Origin: Clavibacter californiensis | GTDB taxonomy: Bacteria > Actinomycetota > Actinomycetes > Actinomycetales > Microbacteriaceae | DNA: 64,000 bases | Assembly: GCF_021952865.1 (NCBI RefSeq) | Contig: NZ_CP040792.1 | Location: 434,001-498,000 of the forward strand | Reading direction: 5' to 3' | Shown here: positions 38,607 to 51,042 of the stretch, one piece after another | Position numbering within the stretch: position 1 is the first letter of the stretch | Layout of the letters: each line of letters starts with the position of its first letter | Position numbers and translations under genes: made by a program | The notes under the pieces: model-generated | What the model saw: only the letters and a program-made list of their open reading frames with translations | Database searches by the model: none | What the model was told of the DNA's origin: nothing

Positions 38607-39008
38607 TCAGCCCCGCGCGATCCGCCCCGCGACCTCCCGCAGCACGTCCGCGTCCTCGTAGGCCAGCTCCATCCCGACCGCGTCGCCCACCGGGAACCAC
38701 GCGACGCGCTGCCCCTCCGTGAGCCGGATGTCCTCCGCCGCCACGTCGAGCCGCGCCGTGAACGTGTGCTCGATCCCGTAGGAGCGCGTGCGCGTCATGA
38801 GGTGCGCGACCTCGGCCGGCGGGATCCGCGCCCCCAGCTCCTCCTCGACCTCCCGCACGATGCACGCGAGCGGCGTCTCGCCCGGCTCGAGCATGCCGCC
38901 GGGGATCGCCCACATGCCGGGGAAGGGGATGGTCGGGATGTCGTCGCGCAGCTGAAGCAGGATCCGCCCGGCCGCGTCGACGAGCACGACCTGGCAGCCC
39001 TCGCTCAC
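38607..39008 (-). CDS. Nudix hydrolase
   Basis: 133-residue pyrophosphohydrolase with a complete Nudix box, GGMLEPGETPLACIVREVEEELG (first residues G-x5-E-x7-REVxEELG read in order). Compact single domain, MutT/NADH-type architecture; WFPVGDAVGMELAYEDADVL closes the fold. GTG at 39008 overlaps the MarR gene stop (GTGA), so it is the second gene of a two-gene unit. Substrate nucleotide unknown. Confidence 0.92.
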   Translation of the reverse strand: MSEGCQVVLVDAAGRILLQLRDDIPTIPFPGMWAIPGGMLEPGETPLACIVREVEEELGARIPPAEVAHLMTRTRSYGIEHTFTARLDVAAEDIRLTEGQRVAWFPVGDAVGMELAYEDADVLREVAGRIARG

Positions 39009-39499
39009 GCGGGCGCGCCCGCATCCGGCCCGTCGATGGTGTGCGCGGTCATGGCGATCGCGGCGCGCGCGATGTCCTCGGCCGTCTCCTCGGTGCCGAG
39101 CGCGGGGGAGGCCCGGAGCGCCACGGCGGCCGCCTCCCGGTAGTCGGCCTCCATGCGGGCGAGCGTCTTCCGTCCGGCGTCGGTGAGCTCGAGGAAGACG
39201 CTGCGGCGGTCCTTCGGGTTGGGCACGCGGTCGAGGTGCCCGGCGCCGACCAGCCGGTCGATCACGGCGGTCACCGCGCCCGTGCCCATCGAGATCTCGA
39301 CGGCCAGGTGCTTGGGCGTCATGCGGTGCAGGTCGCCGACCACGCTGATCACGGTCAGGTCGGTCACGTTCACGCCGATGTCCTGCGCGATGCGCGTGCG
39401 CAGGTGGCGCTGCGCGGTCTCGATCATGTGCAGCGCGTTCGCGAGGGACTCCACGGCCGCGGCGTCGTCGCGGCGAAGGGCGGTTCTCTGCGGGCTCAT
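39005..39499 (-). CDS. MarR-family transcriptional regulator
   Basis: 164-residue winged-helix regulator: LTVISVVGDLHRMTPKHLAV, the recognition helix MGTGAVTAVIDRLVGAGHLD and wing RVPNPKDRRSVFLELTDAG are all characteristic. I set the start at the ATG at 39499; the frame upstream (to 39667) is proline/arginine-rich and crosses the regulatory region. The following Nudix gene overlaps it. A palindromic site lies upstream (39628-39654) between it and the divergent TasA-like gene. Confidence 0.87.
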   Translation of the reverse strand: MSPQRTALRRDDAAAVESLANALHMIETAQRHLRTRIAQDIGVNVTDLTVISVVGDLHRMTPKHLAVEISMGTGAVTAVIDRLVGAGHLDRVPNPKDRRSVFLELTDAGRKTLARMEADYREAAAVALRASPALGTEETAEDIARAAIAMTAHTIDGPDAGAPA

Positions 39500-39730: not shown

Positions 39731-40399
39731 ATGTCGCACCACATCGCCCCCGCCGTCAAGACCAAGCGCGTCCGCTTCGCCCCCCTCGCCATCGCGACCG
39801 GCGTCGCCGCCGCCGTCCTCCTCTCCGTCTCGATGTCCGGCACGCTGTCGGGCTTCGTCGCCTCGATCACCAACGACACCAACACGGCGGCCTCCGGCTC
39901 GCTCGTCATGCAGGAGTCGCAGGCCGGCGCCAACGGCGCCCCGACCGTCACCTGCCTCAGCACGAGCGCCACGTCCGGCGTCGACTCCAACGCCGCCACC
40001 TGCTCCACCATCAACAAGTTCGGCGGCTCGACCACGATGATCCCCGGCCAGACGGTCACGAGCGTCGTGAACATCAAGAACGTCGGCACCTCCAAGGCCT
40101 CGACCTTCACGCTGACCCCCGGCGCGGCCTGCACGCAGACCAAGAACGGCACCGTCAACGGCTCGGCCACCGACTTCTGCGCCAAGCTCAACGTCGTCAT
40201 CACCGCGGCCGGCAGCGCGACCCCGGTCTACTCGGGCACCGCGGCGGCCCTCGCCGGATCCTCCGCCAAGACGCTGACCGCCCTCGCCGCCAACGGCAGC
40301 ACCGACTTCACCTTCGCCGTCACGCTCGACGCCTCCGCCGGCAACACGTACCAGGGCCTCGGCGCCTCGCTGCCCCTCACCTGGACCTTCGCCGCCTAG
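39731..40399 (+). CDS. TasA/camelysin-like secreted protein with SipW-type signal
   Basis: 222-residue exported protein, first gene of locus 1 of the surface system. Signal helix FAPLAIATGVAAAVLLSVSM, then the junction GFVASITNDTNTAASGSL, then a beta-rich, Ser/Thr/Ala-rich body with four Cys (TCLSTS, ATCSTI, ACTQT, FCAKL) and IPGQTVTSVVNIKNVGTSKA, a segment typical of camelysin/TasA-like proteins. TasA forms amyloid-like matrix fibres in Bacillus after SipW cleavage (established). Here the following gene is a SipW-type peptidase and the next secreted protein has the same junction. Confidence 0.82.
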   Translation: MSHHIAPAVKTKRVRFAPLAIATGVAAAVLLSVSMSGTLSGFVASITNDTNTAASGSLVMQESQAGANGAPTVTCLSTSATSGVDSNAATCSTINKFGGSTTMIPGQTVTSVVNIKNVGTSKASTFTLTPGAACTQTKNGTVNGSATDFCAKLNVVITAAGSATPVYSGTAAALAGSSAKTLTALAANGSTDFTFAVTLDASAGNTYQGLGASLPLTWTFAA

Positions 40400-40460
40400 C
40401 CCCCGCCAGCCCACCCAGCTGGATCCCCCCCCGCCAGCCCACCCAGCTGGATCCCCCCCC
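40400..40460 (+). repeat. tandem direct repeat of about 30 bp
   Basis: Two copies of a unit containing CCGCCAGCCCACCCAGCTGG followed by ATCCCCCC lie back to back (about 40401-40430 and 40431-40460) right after the stop of the TasA-like gene. They precede the hairpin at 40461. Likely a slippage product. Confidence 0.85.
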
Positions 40461-40486
40461 GCGGGGCCGCCGAGAGGCGGCCCCGC
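40461..40486 (+). terminator. perfect 11-bp hairpin between TasA-like and signal peptidase genes
   Basis: GCGGGGCCGCC, loop GAGA, and the exact complement. No T-run follows. It could reduce read-through so that the abundant secreted protein is made in excess over the peptidase, or protect the 3' end of the upstream message. Confidence 0.65.
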
Positions 40487-40510
40487 ACCCCTTGACCCGG
40501 GAGGTGCCCC

Positions 40511-41542
40511 ATGACCGACATCCAGGACCGCTCGCCCGCCCCCACGGCCGGCACCGCTCCGATCGACGCCCTCGAGCTGGAGGCGGCGCTCGCCCTGGAC
40601 CTGGACCTCGAGCTCGACCTCCTCGCCGAGGAGCTCCTCCTCGACCCGGCCGCCCCGGTGCTCCCCGCACCCGGCCTCCCCGTGCGCGGCGCGACCCGAC
40701 GCGCCGCGCGCACCTCCCGCACGATCCGCCGCCGCACCGTCCTGATGTGGGCCGCCACCGTCCTCCTCACGGCCCTCGTCGCGGTGACGCTCCTCTTCCA
40801 GGCGTCCGGCGGCCGCTGGTTCGTCGTGCAGACCCCGTCGATGGGCACCACTGCCCCCGTCGGCACGCTGCTGCTCACGACCCCCGTCCTCCTCGAGGAC
40901 CTTCACGTCGGCGACGTCGTCAGCTTCCACCCCTCCACCACGCCGGACGAGACCTACACGCACCGCGTCATCGCGGTCGACGCCGACGGGATCACCACCC
41001 GGGGCGACATCAACGGCGCCGTGGATCCGTGGAAGACCGACCAGGCCCACCTCGTCGGCGAGGCCACGACGATCCTCCCCGGCTTCGGCTGGCTCGCGAA
41101 GGGAGTGCCGCTGCTGCTCGCCGGCCTCGTCATCGTGATGGTCCTCACCCGCCCCATCGGCTCGCCGACGCACCGCGCCTCCATGCGCATGCTCGGCGGC
41201 GCGCTCGTCGCCGCGCTCACGGTCTTCCTGCTCAAGCCCTTCGTCGGCCTCGTCGTGCTCGACGCGGCGACCCGCGGCAGCGACGTGGAGGCGACGGTCG
41301 TCTCGACCGGCATGCTCCCCATCCGCATCGCGGCCGAGGGCGGCACCCACACGACGCTCGCGGCCGGCCAGGTCGGCACGATCACCGCGCCCGCGGCCGA
41401 GGCGGGCCGCTTCCACGACGTGACGTCCACGCTCGACCTGCCGCTCTGGGGCTGGATCCTCTTCTTCGGCCTCTGCGCGCTCCCCCTCCTCTGGACCCTC
41501 GCGGTCGGACTCCCCGCCGAGCGCGAGGAGCGCCGCGCATGA
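40511..41542 (+). CDS. SipW/ER-type signal peptidase I (Ser-His), N-terminally extended
   Basis: 343-residue membrane peptidase. Nucleophile Ser110 in VQTPSMG and general base His151 in YTHRVIAV replace the bacterial Ser-Lys pair, the mark of the SipW/ER group. Membrane helices at ~77-98, ~165-185, ~200-225 and near the end. The first 75 residues are unusual: acidic and leucine-rich (LELEAALALDLDLELDLLAE), then Arg-rich. RBS GGGAGG upstream of the ATG at 40511. It should process the TasA-like and LamG proteins on either side; the stop overlaps the next ATG (ATGA). Confidence 0.88.
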   Translation: MTDIQDRSPAPTAGTAPIDALELEAALALDLDLELDLLAEELLLDPAAPVLPAPGLPVRGATRRAARTSRTIRRRTVLMWAATVLLTALVAVTLLFQASGGRWFVVQTPSMGTTAPVGTLLLTTPVLLEDLHVGDVVSFHPSTTPDETYTHRVIAVDADGITTRGDINGAVDPWKTDQAHLVGEATTILPGFGWLAKGVPLLLAGLVIVMVLTRPIGSPTHRASMRMLGGALVAALTVFLLKPFVGLVVLDAATRGSDVEATVVSTGMLPIRIAAEGGTHTTLAAGQVGTITAPAAEAGRFHDVTSTLDLPLWGWILFFGLCALPLLWTLAVGLPAEREERRA

Positions 41543-42390
41543 CCGTCGCCTCCCGCCTCGCCGCGATCGCCGCGTCCGTCTCCGCGGTCGCCCTCGGCGC
41601 CGTCCTCCTCCTCGCGCCCGGGACGAACGGCGCGTACACCGCCGCCATCACGAACACGAACAACACGGCCGCGTCGTCCGCCGCGTACTTCACCTGCACG
41701 AGCGCGCTCGCAGCCGACCGGGCCGACGCGCTCTTCGCCTACGCGTTCACGGAGGCCGCCGGTTCCACGCGCGCCACGGACAGCGACTCGGGTGCGTACC
41801 CCGGCACCTACCGCGGCACCATGCGCACCACGACCACCTCCCCGCAGGCGTGCCCGCGCGACTCGGGCTCGTCATACCTCCTCGACGGCTTCTCGAGCCA
41901 GGTGACCAACGCCCTGCAGCAGAACTCGCCGGGCGAGTTCTCGACCGAGCTGTGGTTCAAGACCACTGTCAGGGGCGGGAAGCTCATCGGCTTCGGCGAC
42001 AGCCAGGCCGGCCTGTCGAGCTCGTACGACCGCCACACGTACATCAACACCGCGGGCCAGCTCGTGTTCGGCACCTACACGCCGGCTACCGGGATCATGA
42101 CCGTCACGAGCCCCGGCACCGTGACGGACGGTGCCTGGCACCACGTCGTCTCGACGATGTCGCCCACCGCGGGCATGACCCTGTGGCTCGACGGGGTGGC
42201 CGTCGCGGCGAACCCGTCCTACCGCACCGCGGAGGGCACGAGGGGCTGGTGGCGCATCGGCTACGACAACCTCGACACGTGGCCGGGCGCCGGCAACCGC
42301 TTCTTCGCGGGCAGCATGCGCTTCGCGGCCGTGTACTCCGTGGCCCTCACCGGCCAGCAGGTGCGGAACCACTACAACGCCGGCCGCTGA
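41539..42390 (+). CDS. secreted LamG-fold (concanavalin-like) protein with SipW-type signal
   Basis: 283-residue exported protein. Signal helix LAAIAASVSAVALGAVLLLA, junction GAYTAAITNTNNTAASSA, which copies the one in the TasA-like protein (SITNDTNTAAS), then a LamG/laminin-G-like jelly roll of ~200 residues: FSTELWFKTTVRGGKLIGFG, WHHVVSTMSPTAGMTLWLDG, MRFAAVYSVALTGQQVRNHY. LamG domains usually bind carbohydrate or matrix proteins. Third gene of locus 1, overlapping the peptidase by 4 nt. Confidence 0.87.
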   Translation: MTVASRLAAIAASVSAVALGAVLLLAPGTNGAYTAAITNTNNTAASSAAYFTCTSALAADRADALFAYAFTEAAGSTRATDSDSGAYPGTYRGTMRTTTTSPQACPRDSGSSYLLDGFSSQVTNALQQNSPGEFSTELWFKTTVRGGKLIGFGDSQAGLSSSYDRHTYINTAGQLVFGTYTPATGIMTVTSPGTVTDGAWHHVVSTMSPTAGMTLWLDGVAVAANPSYRTAEGTRGWWRIGYDNLDTWPGAGNRFFAGSMRFAAVYSVALTGQQVRNHYNAGR

Positions 42391-42393
42391 CGC

Positions 42394-42427
42394 GACGACG
42401 GGACGGTCGCGTGACCGTCCCGTCGTC
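42394..42427. terminator. strong bidirectional terminator hairpin
   Basis: Perfect 15-bp stem (GACGACGGGACGGTC and its complement) with a GCGT loop lies between the convergent LamG and SnoaL-like lipoprotein genes. Confidence 0.8.
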
Positions 42428-42442
42428 CGTGCGTGCTCCGGA

Positions 42443-43426
42443 TCAGCTCGCGGGCACCACGTCCCAGTGCTCGCGGATGAGGTCGCCGTCGACCCGGAAG
42501 ATGTCGGCGGCGAGGAACGGGTCGTCCGCCTTCGCGCCGACCGGCTGCGAGAAGGTCCAGACGAGGTCGTCGTCGGCGATCGAGATCACCGACTGCTGCG
42601 CCGGGAACTGCGCGCCCCCGGAGAAGAAGGCCTTGAGCGCCGCCGTGCCGTTCGCGGCGACCGTGTTGTGCTGCAGGTACGCCGGGTCGAACGAGCGGTC
42701 GAGCACGCTCGCGTCGTGATCCCGGAAGAGCGTGTCGTAGGCGCCCACGGCCAGCTGCCGGTTCGCCTCCTCCTGCTGCTCGGTCAGCTCGGGCGCGTCG
42801 GCCTCGCCCTGGTAGAGGTCGCTGAACATCGTGTTCGTGTTGCCGCTCGCGGGCGTGCCCTGCGGGATCGGCTGGTCGAACGTCCAACGCGCGGTGACCT
42901 TGCCGTCCGCGAGGCGGAAGAGGTCGACCGCGGCCTCGCCGGTGCGCTCGTCGTCGGGGTTCGACGCGACCTGCCAGTGCACGGCCACGAGGTCTCCGTC
43001 GGCGGCGATGTGCTTGATCACGGCGTGCGCGCCGGGCACCCGCTGGTGCGCCGTGGCGAACTCGTCGAGCACGCCGCTCGGGCCGGCCTTCGCCCCGACG
43101 CCGTTCGCGGTCGAGTCGGGGGCGACGGCTGCCAGCACGGCGGCCTGCGCGCCGGCGGAGGCGGGATCCGGGAACGCGTCCGTGAACAGCGTCGAGATGA
43201 TGGTCGCGTTCCGGTCCTCCGTGTCCGAGTCGGCGCGGTCTGCCGTGGTGCCGCCGTCGCCCGCCGAGCCGGGGGCGGCGGTGGCGACGGCGGTGGTCGC
43301 GTCGGGGGTGGTGTCTGAGGCGGCCGAGGCCGCGCCGGGAGCGGAGCATCCGGCCAGGACGACCACTCCGGCGAGGGCGGCGGTGCCGCGGGCGAGCAGG
43401 GAGACGGGGATTCGTTGAACGCTCAT
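42443..43426 (-). CDS. lipoprotein with two SnoaL-like (NTF2 fold) domains
   Basis: 327-residue lipoprotein: VVVLAGCSAPG lipobox, Ala/Thr/Asp-rich linker to ~75, then two related NTF2-like modules, each with an incoming helix and curved sheet: IKHIAADGDLVAVHWQVASN with DLFRLADGKVTARWTFDQP, and YDTLFRDHDASVLDRSFDP with VISIADDDLVWTFSQPVG and DIFRVDGDLIREHWDVVP. Such cup-shaped domains bind small molecules or act as polyketide cyclase-like enzymes. A duplicated, membrane-anchored form is unusual. Single gene between the two surface loci. Confidence 0.83.
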   Translation of the reverse strand: MSVQRIPVSLLARGTAALAGVVVLAGCSAPGAASAASDTTPDATTAVATAAPGSAGDGGTTADRADSDTEDRNATIISTLFTDAFPDPASAGAQAAVLAAVAPDSTANGVGAKAGPSGVLDEFATAHQRVPGAHAVIKHIAADGDLVAVHWQVASNPDDERTGEAAVDLFRLADGKVTARWTFDQPIPQGTPASGNTNTMFSDLYQGEADAPELTEQQEEANRQLAVGAYDTLFRDHDASVLDRSFDPAYLQHNTVAANGTAALKAFFSGGAQFPAQQSVISIADDDLVWTFSQPVGAKADDPFLAADIFRVDGDLIREHWDVVPAS

Positions 43427-43796
43427 GCACGTACGATGCGACCCGCGGCTGTGAGCCTCCGATGTGCATGGATGCGGCGCTCGCGCGCGTCTCCTGCTAT
43501 GTCACGCGCGGGTGCGTCATCCGGTGACGACCATGCGGGGCGGCCCGCCCGCCCTATCGTCCCTCCGTTCCGAAGCCCATGCGCCGGGTCCGAGTCGCCT
43601 GGCAGGGGCCTCCTCGTTGCGCATGCGAGGGGGCTTCCCTGCGTCCGGGGCCGGGATGCTCCCGCGTGCGCGCCGCCCCGGCCGCCGTCGCCGTCGCCGT
43701 CGCCGTCGCCGGCTCCCGGGCGCACGACGAACGGCCCGGCGTCGTGGGCCGGGCCGTTCGTGGTGGTGCTGTGCCGGGGTCGAGCCCGGGTGGGTG
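43427..43796. other. 370-nt intergenic region, short GCCGTC tract and a terminator
   Basis: No gene is supported. A four-copy GCCGTC microrepeat lies at 43684-43707 and the terminator at 43727-43761 (listed separately). The stretch beginning at the start of the SnoaL-like gene should hold its promoter, but I see no clear hexamers. Confidence 0.6.
43727..43761 (-). terminator. 14-bp perfect hairpin after lipoprotein gene 43797
   Basis: ACGAACGGCCCGGC, a 7-nt loop and the exact complement begin 36 nt past the stop of the minus-strand lipoprotein gene. Strong intrinsic-type hairpin without T-run. Confidence 0.75.
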
Positions 43797-44489
43797 CTAC
43801 TTGGTGTTGACGGTGATCTTGGCGATGCCGACGACGAGCTGGTCGGTGACCGCGGTCGTGCCGAACGTGCTGTTCAGGAGGCTGGCGGCGTCGGGGCTGA
43901 CCTTGACCGTGGTGCCCTCGAGGACGGCGTTGTCGCCCTCCATGGCGAGGGGCTTCAGGGTCGTGCCGTCGAGGTTGAAGATGTAGACGTCCTTCATGAC
44001 CTCGCCGTCGCCGACCTGGACCGAGCCCGTGAGGCGGCTGGTGCCGGGGTCGATGACGAAGTCGGTGAGCTTCACGACGGTGGAGCCGGCGGTGAGGCTG
44101 ATGCCGGAGCCGGAGTGGTCGATCTCGCCCTGGACGTAGGGGCGGTAGGACTGCTCGGGGTCGAAGTACTTCACGTTGCCGCCGGTGATGGGGAACGCGA
44201 GGGTGCCGGTGGCGCCGTCGAGGGTCGCGGTGCCGATGACGCCGGGGGTCAGGCCCAGGGTCGTGAGGGCGCCGGTGAAGCCGGAGTCGAGGGTGACCTG
44301 GGTGTCGACGCCGGTCAGGGTCGGGATCGTCGCGAGCGGCGTGGGGTTGGCCTCGGTCGTCGCGGTCGCGGCGGGTGTGGAGGAGGTCGAGGACGAGGGG
44401 GTCTCGGCGGGGGTCGAGCAGGCCGCGAGGCCGACGACGAGGAAGCCCGCGGTGGCGAGGCCGAAGACGGACTTGGTGAGGTTGCGCAT
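43797..44489 (-). CDS. secreted lipoprotein of unknown function
   Basis: 230 residues: signal peptide and lipobox VVGLAACSTPAE, a Ser/Thr/Pro-rich linker to ~55, then a single beta-rich domain (VTLDSGFTGALTTLGLTPGV, SGISLTAGSTVVKLTDFVID, GSVQVGDGEVMKDVYIFNLDG, LVVGIAKITVNTK). Unlike its neighbours it has Lys, Ile and Phe in fair number. RBS GAAGGAT precedes the ATG at 44489. I do not recognise the family. Lies between the two SipW loci on the same strand as locus 2, but a 166-nt gap separates them. Confidence 0.78.
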   Translation of the reverse strand: MRNLTKSVFGLATAGFLVVGLAACSTPAETPSSSTSSTPAATATTEANPTPLATIPTLTGVDTQVTLDSGFTGALTTLGLTPGVIGTATLDGATGTLAFPITGGNVKYFDPEQSYRPYVQGEIDHSGSGISLTAGSTVVKLTDFVIDPGTSRLTGSVQVGDGEVMKDVYIFNLDGTTLKPLAMEGDNAVLEGTTVKVSPDAASLLNSTFGTTAVTDQLVVGIAKITVNTK

Positions 44490-44655
44490 GATGGATCCTT
44501 CTCATTTCAGGGCGGCCGACGTGGTCGCCGGTTGGAGTCGGATGGTGCTTCGGTGCCCGTCGCCGGGCCGATGGGTCCCGTGATGCTTTCGTGACCCTGG
44601 GCGTCTGATCCGCGGCCGTCGCGGCCGTCGCGGCGCCGAGCGCGAGCCGCGAGGG
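44490..44655. other. 166-nt spacer, promoter of the lipoprotein gene
   Basis: Contains the ribosome-binding site for 44489 and a doubled GGCCGTCGC near 44620. No other structure is clear. Confidence 0.4.
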
Positions 44656-45279
44656 TCAGCGCTGGATGCCCGGGCGCTGGTTGCCGTCGACCCGGAGGGT
44701 CACGGATCCGGTGGCGCCCTGCCCGGTGGTCGGCGCGGAGGCGGCCAGCCGCACCGTGAGGCGCAGGTGATCCCGGCCGCCGGCCGCGAGGGCAGGGGAT
44801 CCGGGCAGCGCGACGCGTCCGATGGCGGGCCGGTCGGCCACCACCGAGGTGATCGTGCCCGAGCAGGTGGCGGTGCCGGGCGCGCCGGTCCACGCGACCG
44901 TGCAGCGGTCGAACGCCACCTGGAGGCCGTCGGACGTGCTCGCGACGGCCGTGCCGCTGAGCGTGACCATGAGCTCGGACACCGTGACGGTGCCGGTGTT
45001 CGCCAGGTCCACGAGCCGCACCTGGGATTCGCCCGGCCGGAGCCCCACGACCGGGACGGTCAGCTGGTCCGCGCCGCCCCCGCCCCAGTCGAGCTCCACG
45101 GCGCCGGCCGTGACCGACGCGGTCGTGGCGGCCCGATCGCTGAAGACGGCGTACGCGGCGCCGGCGCCCGAGAGCGCGAGGGCGACGGCCATCGCCGGGA
45201 CGAGCAGCGGGCGCAGGCGCGCGCCCGGTTCGCGCACGTGGCGTCCCCGGCCTCCGCGATGGCGGGCACCGCCGCTCAT
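44656..45279 (-). CDS. TasA-like secreted protein (locus 2, minor)
   Basis: 207-residue exported protein: Arg/His-rich start, helix LLVPAMAVALALSGAGAAYA, junction AVFSDRAATTASVTAGAVELDW. That junction is the SipW-cognate pattern of TasA/CalY proteins (F-[ST]-D after the helix, then a short polar stretch and AG-hydrophobic). The body is one beta domain with LVDLANTGTVTVSELMVTLSG and a Cys pair (RCTV, TCSGT). The ATG at 45279 overlaps the peptidase stop by ATGA. It is the last gene of the unit LPXTG protein-SipW-TasA-like. Confidence 0.82.
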   Translation of the reverse strand: MSGGARHRGGRGRHVREPGARLRPLLVPAMAVALALSGAGAAYAVFSDRAATTASVTAGAVELDWGGGGADQLTVPVVGLRPGESQVRLVDLANTGTVTVSELMVTLSGTAVASTSDGLQVAFDRCTVAWTGAPGTATCSGTITSVVADRPAIGRVALPGSPALAAGGRDHLRLTVRLAASAPTTGQGATGSVTLRVDGNQRPGIQR

Positions 45280-45866
45280 GCGCCCCCGCCGTCCACGGGG
45301 ATGGCGGGTGCCGGTCGGCGCCAGACGATGCTGAGCGCCCAGGCCGTGACGCCCGTGCCGGCCACGGCGAAGGCGATGAGCCGGAGGGTGGGGTCGCCCA
45401 TCCACACGAACGGCCAGCCCAGCACGGGCACGACGGCGCTGCGGCGCCACACGGCGTCGTCGCCGATGGTGACGATCCAGGGGTCGCCCGCCGGGTTGTT
45501 GTCGCCCTTGGTCTGGATGGCGAGGCGGTCCGCTGACCAGTCCTGGAGCTGATCCGCGTCGTCGGGGCCGAACACGCGCGTCACGCGGTGGATCACCCGG
45601 ACGCGCGGGCCGAGCGGGGCCGTGAAGACGACCACGTCGCCGACCGCGACGTCCGCCCGCGGCGCCGGCTCCGTGATCGCCAGCGAGCCGACGGGCATGC
45701 CGGGCGCCATCGAGTTCGAGAGCACGGGCACGAAGCGCGTGATGCCGAGCGCGGAGAGGGCGACCACGCCGACGACGGCGAGCACCAGGCCGACGGTCGC
45801 GATCCCGCCCAGGACGCCGAGCGCGCGCCGGAGGGGGCCGCGACGGGCGCCCCACCGGCGGGTCAC
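45276..45866 (-). CDS. SipW/ER-type signal peptidase I (Ser-His), locus 2
   Basis: 196-residue signal peptidase: membrane helix at ~18-42 (LGGIATVGLVLAVVGVVALS), Ser52 in VLSNSMAPGMPVGS, His93 in RVIHRVTRV, then ITKGD-like IQTKGDNNPAGDPWIV, and a second helix near 165-185. Ser-His chemistry marks it as SipW/ER group. The GTG at 45866 overlaps the LPXTG gene stop. It lacks the long acidic extension of the locus 1 enzyme, and its substrates carry a different junction motif. Confidence 0.9.
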   Translation of the reverse strand: MTRRWGARRGPLRRALGVLGGIATVGLVLAVVGVVALSALGITRFVPVLSNSMAPGMPVGSLAITEPAPRADVAVGDVVVFTAPLGPRVRVIHRVTRVFGPDDADQLQDWSADRLAIQTKGDNNPAGDPWIVTIGDDAVWRRSAVVPVLGWPFVWMGDPTLRLIAFAVAGTGVTAWALSIVWRRPAPAIPVDGGGA

Positions 45867-46660
45867 GAGGCGGCCTCGCCGTCGGAGCGGTCCCGGCGCG
45901 CAGCCAGGAAGAGGATCCCGCCGCCGAGGAGGGCGAGCAGGGCCCCCGCGAGCGCGGCGAAGACATCGCGTCCCGTGACGGGGAGGAGGTCGCGGGGGAC
46001 GTGGCCGGACGCGGTCGTGGATCCGCCGCACGGCGCGACGGGGGAGCCGGCCCCCGACCCGGGGACGGGGACCGCGCCGGCGTCGTCGGCGAGCGCGAAG
46101 CTCACCCGCAGCATGCCGGATGCGCGCTCCATGGCGTTGTCCGCCTCGGCGGGGAAGCGGATGCGCACGAGGATCCCGACGGTCTCGCCGGGCGCGAGGG
46201 GAGCTGTGGTGTCGACGTGGCCGAGCGTCGCGGCGGGGCCGGAGCCGAGGCGGTCGAGGGAGCCGGGGCAGCTCATCCAGGCGGGCGCGGGGTCGAAGCC
46301 GCCGTCGCAGAGGCGCACGTCGAGCTGGACGCCGCTCCGCGGATCGCCCGTCAGGACCATCGACCGCATGGCGTCGAGGCGCACGGTGAGCGGGCTCCCG
46401 TCGCCGGAGACGTTGGTGACGTCGGCGGCCCAGTCGATGGTGTCGCCGGGGGCGAGCCCGGAGAGCGGGATGTCGGGGTCCGTCCGCTCGACCACCTCGA
46501 GGGTGCCGTCGGCCGGGGCGAGAGGGGGCGTGACGTCCCACGGGGACGCCGGGGCGGCGGGCGGCGCGGCGGCGGCGGGGGATCCGGATGCCGGCGACGC
46601 GGTGGCGAGGGCGAGGCAGAGCGCGACGGTGCCGGTGCCGGTGCCGGTGCGTGCGCGCAT
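45863..46660 (-). CDS. LPXTG-anchored surface protein
   Basis: 265-residue secreted protein with a signal peptide (cleavage near ASGSPA) and a C-terminal sorting signal: LLPVTG, then the helix DVFAALAGALLALLGGGILF and the tail AARRDRSD. The body (residues ~45-200) is a beta sandwich like a pilin or TasA partner (DGTLEVVERTDPDIPLSGLA, PLTVRLDAMRSMVL, RIRFPAEADNAME). First gene of the overlapping trio with SipW and TasA-like genes. Sortase-dependent attachment is inferred; a class F sortase is encoded at 31561 in this window. Confidence 0.85.
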   Translation of the reverse strand: MRARTGTGTGTVALCLALATASPASGSPAAAAPPAAPASPWDVTPPLAPADGTLEVVERTDPDIPLSGLAPGDTIDWAADVTNVSGDGSPLTVRLDAMRSMVLTGDPRSGVQLDVRLCDGGFDPAPAWMSCPGSLDRLGSGPAATLGHVDTTAPLAPGETVGILVRIRFPAEADNAMERASGMLRVSFALADDAGAVPVPGSGAGSPVAPCGGSTTASGHVPRDLLPVTGRDVFAALAGALLALLGGGILFLAARRDRSDGEAAS

Positions 46661-46672
46661 GGTCGGGTCCTC

Positions 46673-46721
46673 GGGTGATGCGGTGCTGGGTGATGCTGGG
46701 CGGGTGATGCGGTGCTGGGTG
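46673..46721. repeat. short duplicated 20-mer upstream of LPXTG gene
   Basis: GGGTGATGCGGTGCTGGGTG occurs at 46673-46692 and again at 46702-46721. Similar GGTG-rich text lies at 47515-47565 upstream of the TasA-like gene. It could mark a regulator site or low-complexity slippage. Confidence 0.7.
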
Positions 46722-46738
46722 GTGCGGGGACGTGCGGG

Positions 46739-46774
46739 CCGATCGGGCCCCGGCGCGTGCCGGGGCCCGATCGG
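46739..46774 (-). terminator. 16-bp perfect hairpin after TasA-like gene 46781
   Basis: A perfect 16-bp stem with GCGT loop begins 6 nt past the stop of the TasA-like gene and precedes the LPXTG gene. It should separate expression of the abundant subunit from the downstream trio. Confidence 0.8.
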
Positions 46775-46780
46775 ACCCGG

Positions 46781-47488
46781 TCAGCGCTGCAGGCCGCCGC
46801 GCTGGATCGCGGCCGCCGTGAAGGTGAGCTGCGCGGACGCGTTCTCGTAGTCGCTGTCGGCGCCGGTCGGCAGCTGCAGCACCATCAGCGTGTTGAGCGT
46901 CACGTCGGCCGTGTCGCTCGGGAACGTGCCGTCGGCCGTGGGCGTGAGGCCGAAGGCCGCCGGCGTGAGCGTGGTGGAGTTGCCCGCGCCCGTGATGGAG
47001 GCGAGCGTGCCGCTGCCCGTCGTCTGCGTCGTCCCGCCGCACGTGTACGGACCCGCCGGCGTGGTCGTCGGGCCGGCCGTCCAGGTGCCGCCGACGCAGG
47101 TCAGCAGGCTGTAGGTGAGCCCGTCCGTGCCCGTGACGATCGACTCGCCCGCGCCGGGGACGTTCGGGTCGTCCGTCCCGACCGTCTGGCCGGTCACGGC
47201 GTACGACAGCTGGATCGACTGCACCAGGTTGCCGTCGTTCGTGGCGTTCGGCAGCTCGATCAGGATCGGGCGCTGCACGGTGTCGCCCGGCGCGATGTCC
47301 GCGACGGTGTAGCTGCCGGTCGCGGCGATGTCGAGCTGGCCCGCGTCGACGCCGAGCGTCGTCGAGGCCGAGTCGGTGAAGATGGCGAACGCCCCGCCGG
47401 CGAGGGCCCCGCCTCCCGCGATGATCGCGACGGTGGCGACGATCTTCTTCCAGGGGCGGCGCGTCTCGGCTGCTGTGGTGGTGCTCAT
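46781..47488 (-). CDS. TasA/camelysin-like secreted protein (locus 2, major)
   Basis: 235-residue exported protein: RRPWKKIVATVAIIAGGGAL, then GGAFAIFTDSASTTLGVDAGQLDI, the textbook SipW-cognate signal junction (F-T-D, later AGQLDI). The beta-rich body has IAPGDTVQRPILIELPNATN and a Cys pair (LLTCVGG, YTCGG). ATG at 47488. It resembles TasA/CosT-type fibre subunits in architecture. Bracketed by its own terminator and GGTG repeats, hence probably expressed separately and strongly. Cognate peptidase is at 45276. Confidence 0.85.
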   Translation of the reverse strand: MSTTTAAETRRPWKKIVATVAIIAGGGALAGGAFAIFTDSASTTLGVDAGQLDIAATGSYTVADIAPGDTVQRPILIELPNATNDGNLVQSIQLSYAVTGQTVGTDDPNVPGAGESIVTGTDGLTYSLLTCVGGTWTAGPTTTPAGPYTCGGTTQTTGSGTLASITGAGNSTTLTPAAFGLTPTADGTFPSDTADVTLNTLMVLQLPTGADSDYENASAQLTFTAAAIQRGGLQR

Positions 47489-47625
47489 GGTGGTGCTTCC
47501 TCTCGATGGGTCGTGCGATGCGATGCGTGCGGTGGTGCGGTGGGTGGTGCGGTGCTGTCGGCGGATCTGGTCGGATGGCCCGGTGCCGGGCGGCGGATGC
47601 GGCCTGGGGGGTCGTGGCGCGGGCA

Positions 47626-50600
47626 TCAGCAGCCCACCGCGGAGACGGTCGCCGGCTGGGCGACGGCGAGGGAGGGCGCGCTCGGGATGCCGACCCAGCG
47701 CTGCAGGTCGGGCCGGACGCGCCACTGGTAGGAGCGGGACTCGCCGAGACGGTCGTCCGAGAACGACGTCACGGTGCCGTCGAGGCGGGCGACGGTGATC
47801 CAGGCGCCGGGCGTCGTTCCCGCGACGCGCCGCTCGACGAGCTGGTCGGTGGCGCCCGGGACCGCGGTCCAGGCGAGCGCCGTGACCGGGCGGCCGGCGA
47901 CGCAGCCGGCGATCGCGCCGGTGACGGTCGTCGAGCTCGTCCAGGTGCCGGTGGAGGCGCCGAGGCTGGCGTCGTCCCGGTGCGTGAAGCCGCGGGGCAC
48001 GAGCGGGGCGGGATCCAGGAACACCGTGATGGTGGAGGACGCGGCGATCCCGGTGCCGGGCGCCGCCGGACGGTCGGTGATCGCGTAGGCGACGACGGAG
48101 GATCCCGGCGTCCCCGTGGCCGGCGGCTGGTAGGTGCACAGAACGGCCGTGCAGCCGAAGGACCCGGGCAGCGCGGCGGGCGGGGTGGCGCCGGTGATGG
48201 CGAGGGAGTCGCCGTCGACGTCGGTGTCGTTCGCGCGCGGGTCGATGGTCACGGCCGGCCCGCCGATCGTCGCCACCAGCCGGTCGGCCCGGGCGACGGC
48301 GGGGCGGTTGACGGCCGTGACCGTGATCGTGACCCGCACGTTCCACGTGCCCACGCCGCTCTGCAGCGCGTAGTCGAAGACGTCGACGCCCGTGAAGCCC
48401 TCGGCGGACCGGTAGGTGCACTTGCCGCGATCCGTGCCGCTCGCGACGCACGTGGCGCTGCCGGCCGTCGGCGACGCCGGCACGGGACCCGCGGCGCCGC
48501 CGACGAGGGCGGGCGTCGCCGAGAGCTGCGCTCGGCTGAGGGTCGCGCCCGTCGCGGCGCGTCCGTCGTTGGCGAGCACGTCGATCACCACGGGCACACC
48601 CTGCGGCGTCGTCGCGGCGTCGGGCAGCGGGTCGGCGACGGCGAGGACGGTCGCCGTCGCGGTGCCGCTGACCTGCCCGGTCGGCGCGGTCGCGGTCGCC
48701 GTCGCGGTGTTGACGATGGATCCGGCCGCCACGTCCGCGGTCGTGGCCGTGTACGTGGCGGTCGCCGTGACGACCTGGCCGGGCGCGAGCGTGCCCGCGG
48801 TCCCGGGCCACGTGTAGGCGAGCGCGGAGACGCCGGTGCGCGGATCCGCGATGGAGACGCTCGTGAGCGTCGTCGACCCGGTGTTCTGCAGCCGGAACGC
48901 GTACGTGACGACGCCGCCCGCCGCCGGCACGTTGCCGGGCGTCGCGGTCTTCGTGAAGGCGAGGGTCGCCGTGCGGTCGAGGGTCAGCGTGCGGGTTGCT
49001 GTGGCCTGCGCCTGGGTGCCGCCCGAGCTCGCGCCGCGCACGGTCGCGGTGTTCGCGATCTGCCCCGCGTCGACGTCGGCCTGCCGCACCGTGTAGCTCG
49101 CCGTCGCCGTGGCGGTGGCGCCTGCGGCGAGGGTCCCGGCCGTGCCCGGCCACGTGTACGTCACGGCCGACAGCCCGGGCAGCGGGTCCGTGAGCGCCAC
49201 CCCGGTCAGCGGCACCGTGCCGGTGTTCGTGATGGAGAAGGCGTACGCGACCGTCGAGCCGGCCTTCGATCCGCCCGTGAGCGTCGCGCCCTTGGTGAGC
49301 GTGAGGGCCGCGGATGCGTTGACGGGCGTGCTCGTCGACGAGCTCGCGGTCGGGGCGGGCACGTTGGCGAAGGTCTGGCCGGAGACGGTGGCGGTGTTCA
49401 CGATCGGCGTCGCGGCGTTCACGTCGGCCTGCGTCACGGTGTACGCCGTGGAGGTGAAGGTCTGCGAGGCGCCGGGCGCGAGGGTCACGGAGGCGGGGCT
49501 GATCCCGGTGACGCGCGGATCCGCGACCGCCACCTGCCGCAGCGACACGTTCCCGGCGTTGCGCGCGACGAACGAGTAGGCGATCCGCTCGCCGACGTCC
49601 GCCTTGCCGTTGCCGTTGGAGTCGGTGAGCGCGCCCGTCTTCGTGAGCGCGAGCGCGGGGGCGGGGGCCGCGATCGGCACCGTGACGGAGCTCGTGTTGC
49701 TCGTCACGCCCGCGAGCAGCGTGTTGACGCCGGTCGCGGTCGCGGTGTTCGTGAGCGTGGCGTTCACGGCCTCCGCGGGCGTCACGACGTGGATCCCCGT
49801 GCAGGTGATGGATCTGCCGCCGATGAACAGGCCAAGCCCGAGCAGGCCGCCCGGGCAGGAGACCGACGAGACCAGGGGATCGTTCACGGCGAGGTTCGAG
49901 AGCGTGAGCCCGCCGGTGTTGGTCAACACGAACTGGTAGCGGATCTCCTGCCCCTCGCCGTAGGCCGCCAGCTGCGCGGTCGACCGGTCGATCTGCTTCA
50001 CGAGGGTGAGGGTCGTGAGGTTGTCGAGGCTCGAGACGCTCACCTCGCGGATCAGGTGCGTGTCCCTGAACGTGCCCGTGGAGGCGAGGTAGCCGAACTT
50101 GTAGGAGGAGGGGGCGGGGGTCGTCATCGTGTACTGCAGGACCTGCGTGAGGGAGGCGGTGGATGCGCCGGCCGCCGCGCCCATGTAGACGGTGACGACG
50201 GGGAGCCGCGCCGACGAGACCGTGATGCGGATGGTCCGGCCGAGGTCCGTGGTGGGGGTGCTCAGGGTGGTGGTCGCGCGCAGGCTCGTCGCGGGCGAGA
50301 CGCCCGTCAGGTAGCAGTAGCCCGCGAGGCCCGTGCCGGGTCCGCGCAGCGCGATCGCGTTCGGACGCTGGCCGACGCCGGCGCTCGGGGTGGTGCAGCC
50401 CGTGCCGCGGCCCTCGGTGGGGCTCGAGAAGTTGCCGAACGCGTCGAGGCCGACGCCGAGGTAGCCGCCCGCGACGCCGGCCGCGGTCGTGGTCTGGGCG
50501 TAGCCGAGGCCTCCGCCGGACGGGCCCGCTGCGGTGAGCGGCACGGATCCGTCGGTGAGGAAGAACCCGATGCCGTCGGCGCCGCCGGAGGAGGTGCCGT

Positions 50601-51042
50601 ACTGGTACTGGTCGAACTTGACGTCGAGGCCGCCCGTGGCGGGGATCGCGTTGTCGTAGACCACGCCGCCGACCGCGTCGGCGCGGTTGTCGGTGAGCTG
50701 GAGGGCCCCCGGGTTCGCGCTCGCGGGCAGCGACTGGTCCCTGCTCGAGCACACGCCGATGGTCGACCCGCTCGTCGGGGCGGAGGTGGCGCGGGTGAGG
50801 CACGCGCTGCCGAGCGGCTTCCACGCGGCGTCCGCCACGGTCGTCCCGCTGAACGACTCGGCGACCAGCTGCGACGCGGCGGTCGCGGTCTGCGTGGGCA
50901 GGGTCACGAGGAGGGCGGCGGCGGCGACGGCGGCGGCGGCGAGCGCGGCCAGGCGGCGGATCCCGGGGCGGGAGCGCGCGCCGGACGCGACCGGACCCGG
51001 TGCGGCGGCATGGCGCGCACGCGTACCCACCACTTCGACCAC
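47626..51042 (-). CDS. large secreted lectin/DUF11-repeat surface protein (1138 aa)
   Basis: Signal peptide with helix LAALAAAAVAAAALLVTLP, cleavage near ATAASQ. Residues ~57-330 resemble an L-type (legume-type) lectin module (VAESFSGTTVADAAWKPLG, GIGFFLTDGSVPL, VGLDAFGNFSSPTEG). Four DUF11-like repeats follow, each of the type LTKTGALTDSNGNGKADVGE...VNTATVSG; then two cadherin-like modules (VVIDVLANDGRAATG, AVTIDPRANDTDVDGDSLAI), and a fibronectin-like end. No anchor motif. GTG at 51042 is weakly supported; a GTG at 51033 has GGGAG at better spacing. Architecture fits an adhesin, secreted near the TasA-like genes. Confidence 0.87.
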   Translation of the reverse strand: MVEVVGTRARHAAAPGPVASGARSRPGIRRLAALAAAAVAAAALLVTLPTQTATAASQLVAESFSGTTVADAAWKPLGSACLTRATSAPTSGSTIGVCSSRDQSLPASANPGALQLTDNRADAVGGVVYDNAIPATGGLDVKFDQYQYGTSSGGADGIGFFLTDGSVPLTAAGPSGGGLGYAQTTTAAGVAGGYLGVGLDAFGNFSSPTEGRGTGCTTPSAGVGQRPNAIALRGPGTGLAGYCYLTGVSPATSLRATTTLSTPTTDLGRTIRITVSSARLPVVTVYMGAAAGASTASLTQVLQYTMTTPAPSSYKFGYLASTGTFRDTHLIREVSVSSLDNLTTLTLVKQIDRSTAQLAAYGEGQEIRYQFVLTNTGGLTLSNLAVNDPLVSSVSCPGGLLGLGLFIGGRSITCTGIHVVTPAEAVNATLTNTATATGVNTLLAGVTSNTSSVTVPIAAPAPALALTKTGALTDSNGNGKADVGERIAYSFVARNAGNVSLRQVAVADPRVTGISPASVTLAPGASQTFTSTAYTVTQADVNAATPIVNTATVSGQTFANVPAPTASSSTSTPVNASAALTLTKGATLTGGSKAGSTVAYAFSITNTGTVPLTGVALTDPLPGLSAVTYTWPGTAGTLAAGATATATASYTVRQADVDAGQIANTATVRGASSGGTQAQATATRTLTLDRTATLAFTKTATPGNVPAAGGVVTYAFRLQNTGSTTLTSVSIADPRTGVSALAYTWPGTAGTLAPGQVVTATATYTATTADVAAGSIVNTATATATAPTGQVSGTATATVLAVADPLPDAATTPQGVPVVIDVLANDGRAATGATLSRAQLSATPALVGGAAGPVPASPTAGSATCVASGTDRGKCTYRSAEGFTGVDVFDYALQSGVGTWNVRVTITVTAVNRPAVARADRLVATIGGPAVTIDPRANDTDVDGDSLAITGATPPAALPGSFGCTAVLCTYQPPATGTPGSSVVAYAITDRPAAPGTGIAASSTITVFLDPAPLVPRGFTHRDDASLGASTGTWTSSTTVTGAIAGCVAGRPVTALAWTAVPGATDQLVERRVAGTTPGAWITVARLDGTVTSFSDDRLGESRSYQWRVRPDLQRWVGIPSAPSLAVAQPATVSAVGC

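What the first reader, a model, noticed from the sequence alone, without database searches (positions are those of the whole stretch)
39731..47488. Two SipW-type secretion loci, each with its own substrate junction motif: a candidate surface-fibre system
Two Ser-His signal peptidases (40511, 45276) each sit with TasA/camelysin-like or partner secreted proteins. Locus 1 substrates share ITN(D/T)xNTAAS after the signal helix (SITNDTNTAAS and AITNTNNTAAS) although one body is camelysin-like and the other LamG. Locus 2 substrates share F(S/T)DxAxTT followed by AG(A/Q)(V/L). This predicts orthogonal peptidase-substrate pairs. TasA fibre formation after SipW cleavage is established in Bacillus; its transfer to this organism is inference.
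Basis: partly seen in the sequence, partly recalled or inferred. Interest (0 to 1): 0.78.

Follow-up and report, generated by a model that had tools for sequence, protein, structure and literature searches.

The report
TasA-like fibre cassette with lectin partner
A three-gene cassette in a plant-associated actinobacterium looks like a surface-fibre system: a fibre subunit related to the Bacillus biofilm protein TasA, a dedicated signal peptidase with an extra domain, and a lectin-like protein carrying the same start sequence that would let it plug into the fibre.

Summary
The genes and shared strings are real, but the locus-1 string is probably not a cleavage-site motif. Locus 1 is a conserved cassette: protein A, a long Ser-His (SipW/SEC11-type) peptidase, and LamG protein B. 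The genome holds four SipW-type loci, not two. ITNxxNTAA occurs only twice in it, both times in locus 1. Profile comparison puts the cut about five residues upstream, with A's Phe42 in the usual aromatic P2' place. The shared segment is then P4'-P15' of the mature protein, where the TasA donor strand lies. A is TasA-like: its AlphaFold model has one PDB match at E<=0.001, the TasA fibre. A and B share only this N-terminus. Strong A matches are in 32 of the 33 genomes (of 299) with a long peptidase. Three ORFs fuse the peptidase to B. Best reading: a donor-strand fibre (A) with a lectin terminal subunit (B) carrying the same strand, matured by a peptidase with an extra, perhaps Ig-like, domain. 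The locus-2 string is not conserved in the same locus of other Clavibacter genomes. Orthogonal peptidases stay possible but untested. Nothing is shown experimentally.

The parts
39005..39499 (-). MarR-family regulator, divergent from gene A
   Evidence: Pfam MarR_2 1.8e-9; a relative lies divergently next to A in 61 of 92 long-peptidase loci with upstream data
39731..40399 (+). Gene A: TasA-like fibre subunit, 222 aa
39851..39898 (+). Predicted mature N-terminus of A, P1'-P16' (GFVASITNDTNTAASG): candidate donor strand
   Evidence: register from hhalign with TIGR04089 proteins; aligned ranges begin at model residue 44 and TasA residue 31
40511..41542 (+). Long SipW-type signal peptidase, 343 aa
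   Evidence: Peptidase_S26 6.5e-8; nearest solved sequences SEC11C/SEC11A; model mean pLDDT 86.1
40838..40840 (+). Catalytic Ser110 codon of the long peptidase
   Evidence: invariant in the 27-row alignment, at least 90% in the 48-row one
40961..40963 (+). Catalytic His151 codon of the long peptidase
   Evidence: invariant in alignments of 27 and 48 rows
41249..41434 (+). Extra ectodomain of the long peptidase (residues 247-308), perhaps Ig-like
41539..42390 (+). Gene B: LamG (ConA-like) protein with SipW-type signal, 283 aa
   Evidence: Laminin_G_3 6.9e-19; start overlaps the peptidase stop
41632..41679 (+). Predicted mature N-terminus of B, P1'-P16' (AYTAAITNTNNTAASS), same segment as in A
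   Evidence: hhalign A family against B family: prob 94.5, E 7.8e-8, 45 N-terminal columns only
44656..45279 (-). Locus 2: camelysin-like protein 2b
   Evidence: PF12389 1.4e-7
45276..45866 (-). Locus 2: SipW2, ordinary short type
   Evidence: TIGR02228 63.6 bits, over cut-off; clade separate from the long type
45863..46660 (-). Locus 2: secreted protein ending in LPVTG, hydrophobic stretch and basic tail (sortase-type anchor, by eye)
   Evidence: sequence; counterparts in the same place in two Rathayibacter genomes; no family hit
46781..47488 (-). Locus 2: camelysin-like protein 2a
   Evidence: PF12389 6.9e-7
47626..51042 (-). Locus 2: 1138-aa DUF7507/DUF11-repeat protein with a weak L-type-lectin match at its N-terminus
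   Evidence: DUF7507 5e-93; Lectin_L-type_dom 35 bits, below its cut-off of 78; keeps its place in two Rathayibacter loci

Best explanation
Locus 1 is a donor-strand surface-fibre cassette of the TasA kind. A is the repeating subunit. The long SipW-type peptidase cuts A after Ser40 and B after Gly31, freeing an N-terminal strand (F/Y-x-A-x-I/V-x-N-x-x-N-T-A). That strand completes the beta-sandwich of the next A subunit. B has an unrelated lectin-like (LamG) body but the same strand, so it can join A only at one end, as TapA does for TasA; it would be the initiating lectin subunit, at the tip or at the base. The ITN motif is then an assembly strand shared by the parts of one fibre rather than a peptidase address. 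Shown here: gene order, conservation, co-occurrence, shared N-terminus with unrelated bodies, A's predicted TasA-like fold, the peptidase clade and its extra domain. Inferred: the cleavage site, donor-strand exchange, B as terminal subunit, and any role of the extra domain.
Against: No experiment. An A-B complex could not be modelled. A's sequence match to TasA is weak on its own (E 0.06) and the TM-score to the TasA fibre is moderate (0.46). The arm where the strand would lie is the least sure part of the model, so the register is weak. The cut site is inferred; a cut after Ala44 (then P2' = Ile46) is not excluded, and an aromatic P2' is no strict rule: 2b of 7 other Clavibacter loci has Leu there. 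Sharing of the mature N-terminus within a locus is slight in other SipW loci (2.38 against 2.01 of 13 positions, 1 of 500 shuffles as high), so the strong effect is special to the long type and could reflect recognition by its extra domain. In B the segment is no more conserved than the body (0.548 against 0.549). No anchor for the fibre is seen in the cassette.
Confidence: 0.6

Rival explanations
1. The shared segment is a recognition tag for the long peptidase: its extra ectodomain binds P4'-P15' of A and B and so gives it its own substrates. This and the best explanation could both hold.
For: Segment, extra domain and cassette go together in the long clade; A has Ser at P1 in 87 of 88 and B Ser or Gly in 76 of 90, where W-type substrates of other SipWs have Ala in 71 of 72 (that W-type pattern allowed only Ala or Ser at P1); peptidase-B fusions.
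Against: The aromatic P2' can be read in all four loci of the genome; signal peptidase contacts usually end by about P3' (recalled); the extra domain shows no profile link to A, which does not bear on binding.
Confidence: 0.25
2. A and B share the N-terminus only because B arose by joining a LamG gene to a copied A signal region; the segment has no role beyond export.
For: Bodies are unrelated and the alignment is confined to the N-terminus. In B the segment is no more conserved than the body (0.548 against 0.549).
Against: P4' Ala (87 of 88 A, 88 of 90 B) and P8' Asn (88 of 88, 80 of 90) stay in both families across several families of Actinomycetota, whereas residues 1-36 of A drift (mean column identity 0.505 against 0.768 for P1'-P16').
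Confidence: 0.1
3. A and B are separate secreted or membrane-bound adhesins or enzymes, not a fibre; PF12389 is named after a peptidase (camelysin).
For: Camelysin naming; no fibre is shown in this phylum by anything I read.
Against: The best fold matches to A include many donor-strand pilus subunits (TasA, P. calidifontis pili, Fim and CfaB proteins), though sugar-hydrolase domains and integrins lie among the lower rows too.
Confidence: 0.15

Closest known systems
tapA-sipW-tasA of Bacillus subtilis (TasA fibre, donor-strand exchange)
   Same: Three genes: fibre subunit, dedicated signal peptidase of the same type, second substrate that shares the donor-strand segment; A model matches the TasA fibre
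   Different: B has a ConA-like lectin body; long peptidase with extra ectodomain; A has four invariant cysteines (C75, C91, C134, C150); order A-peptidase-B; A is too far for the family models
TasA/CalY/CapP filament system of Bacillus cereus (PMC13082335, abstract only)
   Same: sortase-independent filament with a chaperone-like partner
   Different: no lectin partner named in the abstract; peptidase not compared here
TIGR04089 exp_by_SipW_III / TIGR04088 SipW-dependent proteins of Actinomycetota
   Same: same signal architecture and aromatic P2'; remote profile match over most of the length
   Different: A is outside these models; P1 Ser instead of Ala; other mature N-terminus
[quoted passage not shown]
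   Different: archaeal; no lectin partner known to me
Streptococcus pyogenes SipA, signal peptidase homologue needed for pilus polymerisation (4n31)
   Different: serves sortase pili and lacks such an extra domain (recalled)

Membership tests
SipW/ER-type (Ser-His) signal peptidase | S26 fold with Ser and His in place of Ser-Lys | tested here: met
   Peptidase_S26 above cut-off; S110 and H151 conserved; nearest PDB sequences SEC11
SipW/ER-type (Ser-His) signal peptidase | TIGR02228 curated cut-off | tested here: not met
   long type 49.3 bits against 51.85, so not filed under that equivalog; SipW2 at 63.6 passes
TasA/camelysin donor-strand fibre proteins | TasA-like jelly-roll/Ig-type fold | tested here: met
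TasA/camelysin donor-strand fibre proteins | Match to PF12389 or the TasA family model | tested here: not met
   window protein A has no hit; 3 of 48 relatives at E<=0.01
TasA/camelysin donor-strand fibre proteins | N-terminal strand inserted into the next subunit | not testable with these tools
   no complex prediction or experiment; a low-confidence arm without strands is only suggestive
TasA/camelysin donor-strand fibre proteins | export by a linked SipW | tested here: inconclusive
   linkage and co-occurrence shown; cleavage not tested
TIGR04088/TIGR04089 SipW-dependent proteins | model match over cut-off | tested here: not met
   A family: neither model listed for any of 48 members at E<=0.01; the locus-3 protein passes both
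TapA | TapA sequence family | not tested
   B is judged TapA-like in logic only

The most novel reading that the evidence does not exclude
Actinobacteria build adhesive pili by donor-strand exchange without usher or separate chaperone: one membrane protein is both signal peptidase and assembly platform (its Ig-like ectodomain holds the freshly cut strand), a lectin subunit starts the fibre, and each SipW locus in a genome has its own strand, so that several fibres can be built side by side without mixing.
Probability: 0.25. Interest if true: 0.85.

Novelty: new variant of a known kind. Interest (0 to 1): 0.64.

Why it matters
It would extend TasA-type fibres to a large group of plant- and soil-associated Actinomycetota, with a lectin partner and a peptidase of a new architecture. 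It gives a concrete, testable rule (same mature N-terminus, same fibre) for reading this kind of SipW locus, and turns a motif that looked like a cleavage site into a candidate assembly code.

Tried and rejected

Rows dropped: one search used 136 of 174 peptidases (long ones over 80% alike and pieces under 150 aa removed). Alignments hold 47 of 49 and 47 of 56 listed rows, plus the window row each. Searches used 30 of 90 B proteins. One search used 88 of 91 motif-bearing upstream proteins (three with a start called too far downstream fell out) and 90 B proteins, chosen by a pattern that fixes P2', P6', P8', P11' and P12'; its W-type set of 72 was chosen by a pattern that fixes P1 (A or S) and P2' (W or F). 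One search is the check without the A/B pattern. Loci L038-L076 and L086-L165 overlap in part (same genomes); peptidases were made distinct by sequence, but gene counts were not. Non-long SipW sample: 60 regions covering 61 of 109 places, plus the own locus 3.

Literature: searches; LamG with SipW gave 0 papers. PMC9674648 and PMC10151520: passages; PMC10269814 and PMC13082335: abstract and outline. PMC9245690 is not held.

Full report
What is there. In the 3.24 Mb genome that holds the window (2 contigs) the first-stage coordinates are right. Locus 1 (+) has gene A (39731-40399), a 343-aa peptidase (40511-41542) and gene B (41539-42390), whose start overlaps the peptidase stop. A divergent MarR-family gene lies upstream (39005-39499). 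Locus 2 (-) has, in transcription order, a 1138-aa DUF7507-repeat protein, camelysin-like 2a, a protein ending in an LPVTG-type signal, SipW2, and camelysin-like 2b. Named relatives of locus 1 point to the genus Clavibacter (75-81% identity in the best segment; Rathayibacter next at 58-62%). The genome has two more SipW-type loci (C1:~1727k, W-type substrates; C1:~281k, A|AWTD substrates) and one ordinary signal peptidase I.

Is the shared string more than chance? Yes for locus 1. As DNA, ITNxxNTAA is found twice in the own genome, both in locus 1; the reversed control gives 0. In 18 of 18 genomes of the genus it occurs once or twice (place checked in seven). For locus 2 the exact string F(S/T)DxAxTT occurs in 2 of 2286 gene calls, both by SipW2, but it is not kept: in 7 of 7 other Clavibacter copies of 2b, Leu stands in place of the Phe.

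Where does the string lie? A belongs to a family of its own: 48 rows aligned, I46 and N48 invariant, S40, F42, A44 and T52 at least 90%. Compared with the W-type SipW substrates of the same bacterial family (26 of 26 match TIGR04089), hhalign gives probability 82.8, E 9.4e-6, and lines up G-T-L-S40-G41-F42 with G-S-F-A-L-W. So Phe42 sits where the aromatic P2' residue of SipW substrates sits; TasA has Phe there (PMC10269814, abstract). In the structural alignment to the TasA fibre the ranges begin at model residue 44 and TasA residue 31; with mature TasA starting at 28 (PMC10151520, passage) both would be P4'. That part of the model has low confidence, so this is weak support. The cut is inferred after Ser40 in A and Gly31 in B, and ITN(D/T)xNTAAS is P6'-P15'. 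No cut was measured, and an aromatic P2' is not a strict rule, as the Leu in other 2b proteins shows.

What is B? A ConA-like protein: Laminin_G_3 in 27 of 30 scanned; the three without it (L070, L074, L136) have 3-keto-disac_hyd, which I recall as a fold of the same kind. A and B profiles align over 45 N-terminal columns only (probability 94.5, E 7.8e-8). Position tables: P2' F/Y/W, P4' Ala in 87 of 88 A and 88 of 90 B, P6' mostly I/V, P8' Asn (88 of 88, 80 of 90), P11' N/D, P12' mostly T/S; mean identity P3'-P13' is 0.506 between A and B, and 0.145 and 0.122 for A and B against W-type substrates (rows were picked by a pattern that fixes five of these positions). Within-locus A-B identity (0.54) exceeds all of 2000 re-pairings (mean 0.503), which shared ancestry alone could give. 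Without the pattern: an HMM of A residues 37-58 finds 60 of 117 non-A genes next to long peptidases at E<=0.1, none of 450 genes near other SipWs, and 2 of 1065 elsewhere, both B-like by sequence.

The cassette. In 299 genomes of the bacterial family the peptidase search splits into a long type (E<1e-40, 33 genomes) and generic SipWs from E 1e-14 on, with two pieces of a broken long-type gene between. Strong A matches (E<1e-30) are in 32 genomes, all among those 33; the exception, G297, keeps peptidase and B but has a transposase-like fragment in place of A (by eye). One further genome (G074) has a weak A match (2.3e-8). Of 100 distinct long peptidases (this family and GTDB genomes), 92 have an upstream same-strand gene: 90 A-family, 91 with the motif. 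97 have a downstream one: 90 with the motif. The seven misses downstream: two near-misses of the pattern (L047, L068), three where a second secreted gene with the motif or a near form lies upstream instead (L075, L152, L158), and two fusions (L154, L165). Generic-SipW neighbours: 17 of 338 by the loose pattern, 2 by the strict one, which from the listing are those beside the broken long-type gene; background 35 and 4 of 998. Three ORFs (Propionibacteriaceae MAG, Sinomonas, Actinomycetospora) carry in one frame the peptidase (240-288 bits by my long-type HMM; Pfam S26 did not reach E 0.001), a second hydrophobic helix, the motif or a near form and LamG.

Mechanism. In TasA, residues 28-38 (P1'-P11') leave one subunit and complete the next, and the TapA N-terminus resembles that strand and is modelled to give the first one (PMC9674648, passages); TapA can only be at the start of a filament (PMC10151520, passages). 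The A-B pattern repeats this: same strand, body of another fold. I therefore read A as fibre subunit and B as terminal lectin subunit. Whether B is at the tip or the base is open.

Locus 2 is a conserved module in its own right (same five genes in L237 and L239, Rathayibacter by contig match and genus label; four in G083). Across the own genome's four loci the first 15 residues are more alike within a locus than between loci, but over 53 generic loci this is slight.

Novelty. The held literature gave nothing on SipW with LamG (0 papers) and nothing in the rows shown on SipW loci in these genera (listings only, some cut to a few rows). The mechanism is of the TasA kind; the lectin partner, the peptidase architecture and the fusions are new to me. 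Hence: new variant of a known kind.

Noticed in passing
window 44656-51042 (-); L237, L239, L238: Locus 2 is a conserved five-gene module with a giant DUF7507-repeat protein and a sortase-type anchored protein beside SipW2; the anchored protein may hold a second, different fibre on the cell wall.
   Followed up: partly
L236 (own genome C1:274000-290000): A fourth SipW-type locus with two substrates beginning A|AWTDxEW (222 and 617 aa), neither matching Pfam at E<=0.001.
   Followed up: partly
L154 3015-4733, L162 5935-7614, L165 5851-7683: Long peptidase and LamG protein fused in one ORF in genomes of three actinobacterial families.
   Followed up: yes
L042 (G297): Gene A is missing and a transposase-like fragment lies in its place, with peptidase and B kept.
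   Followed up: no
G016 C1:1224947-1225561 and C1:1901783-1902262; G201 C12:22559-23137: A-family genes not at the listed long-peptidase places.
   Followed up: no
L039-L044, L090 (2b gene): Camelysin-like 2b has Leu at the P2' place in seven other Clavibacter loci, against Phe in the window.
   Followed up: partly
L166-L225: Several generic SipW loci hold a third secreted protein of the type 'VSxDGxxF ... PGD' with an ordinary signal peptide next to SipW (by eye).
   Followed up: no
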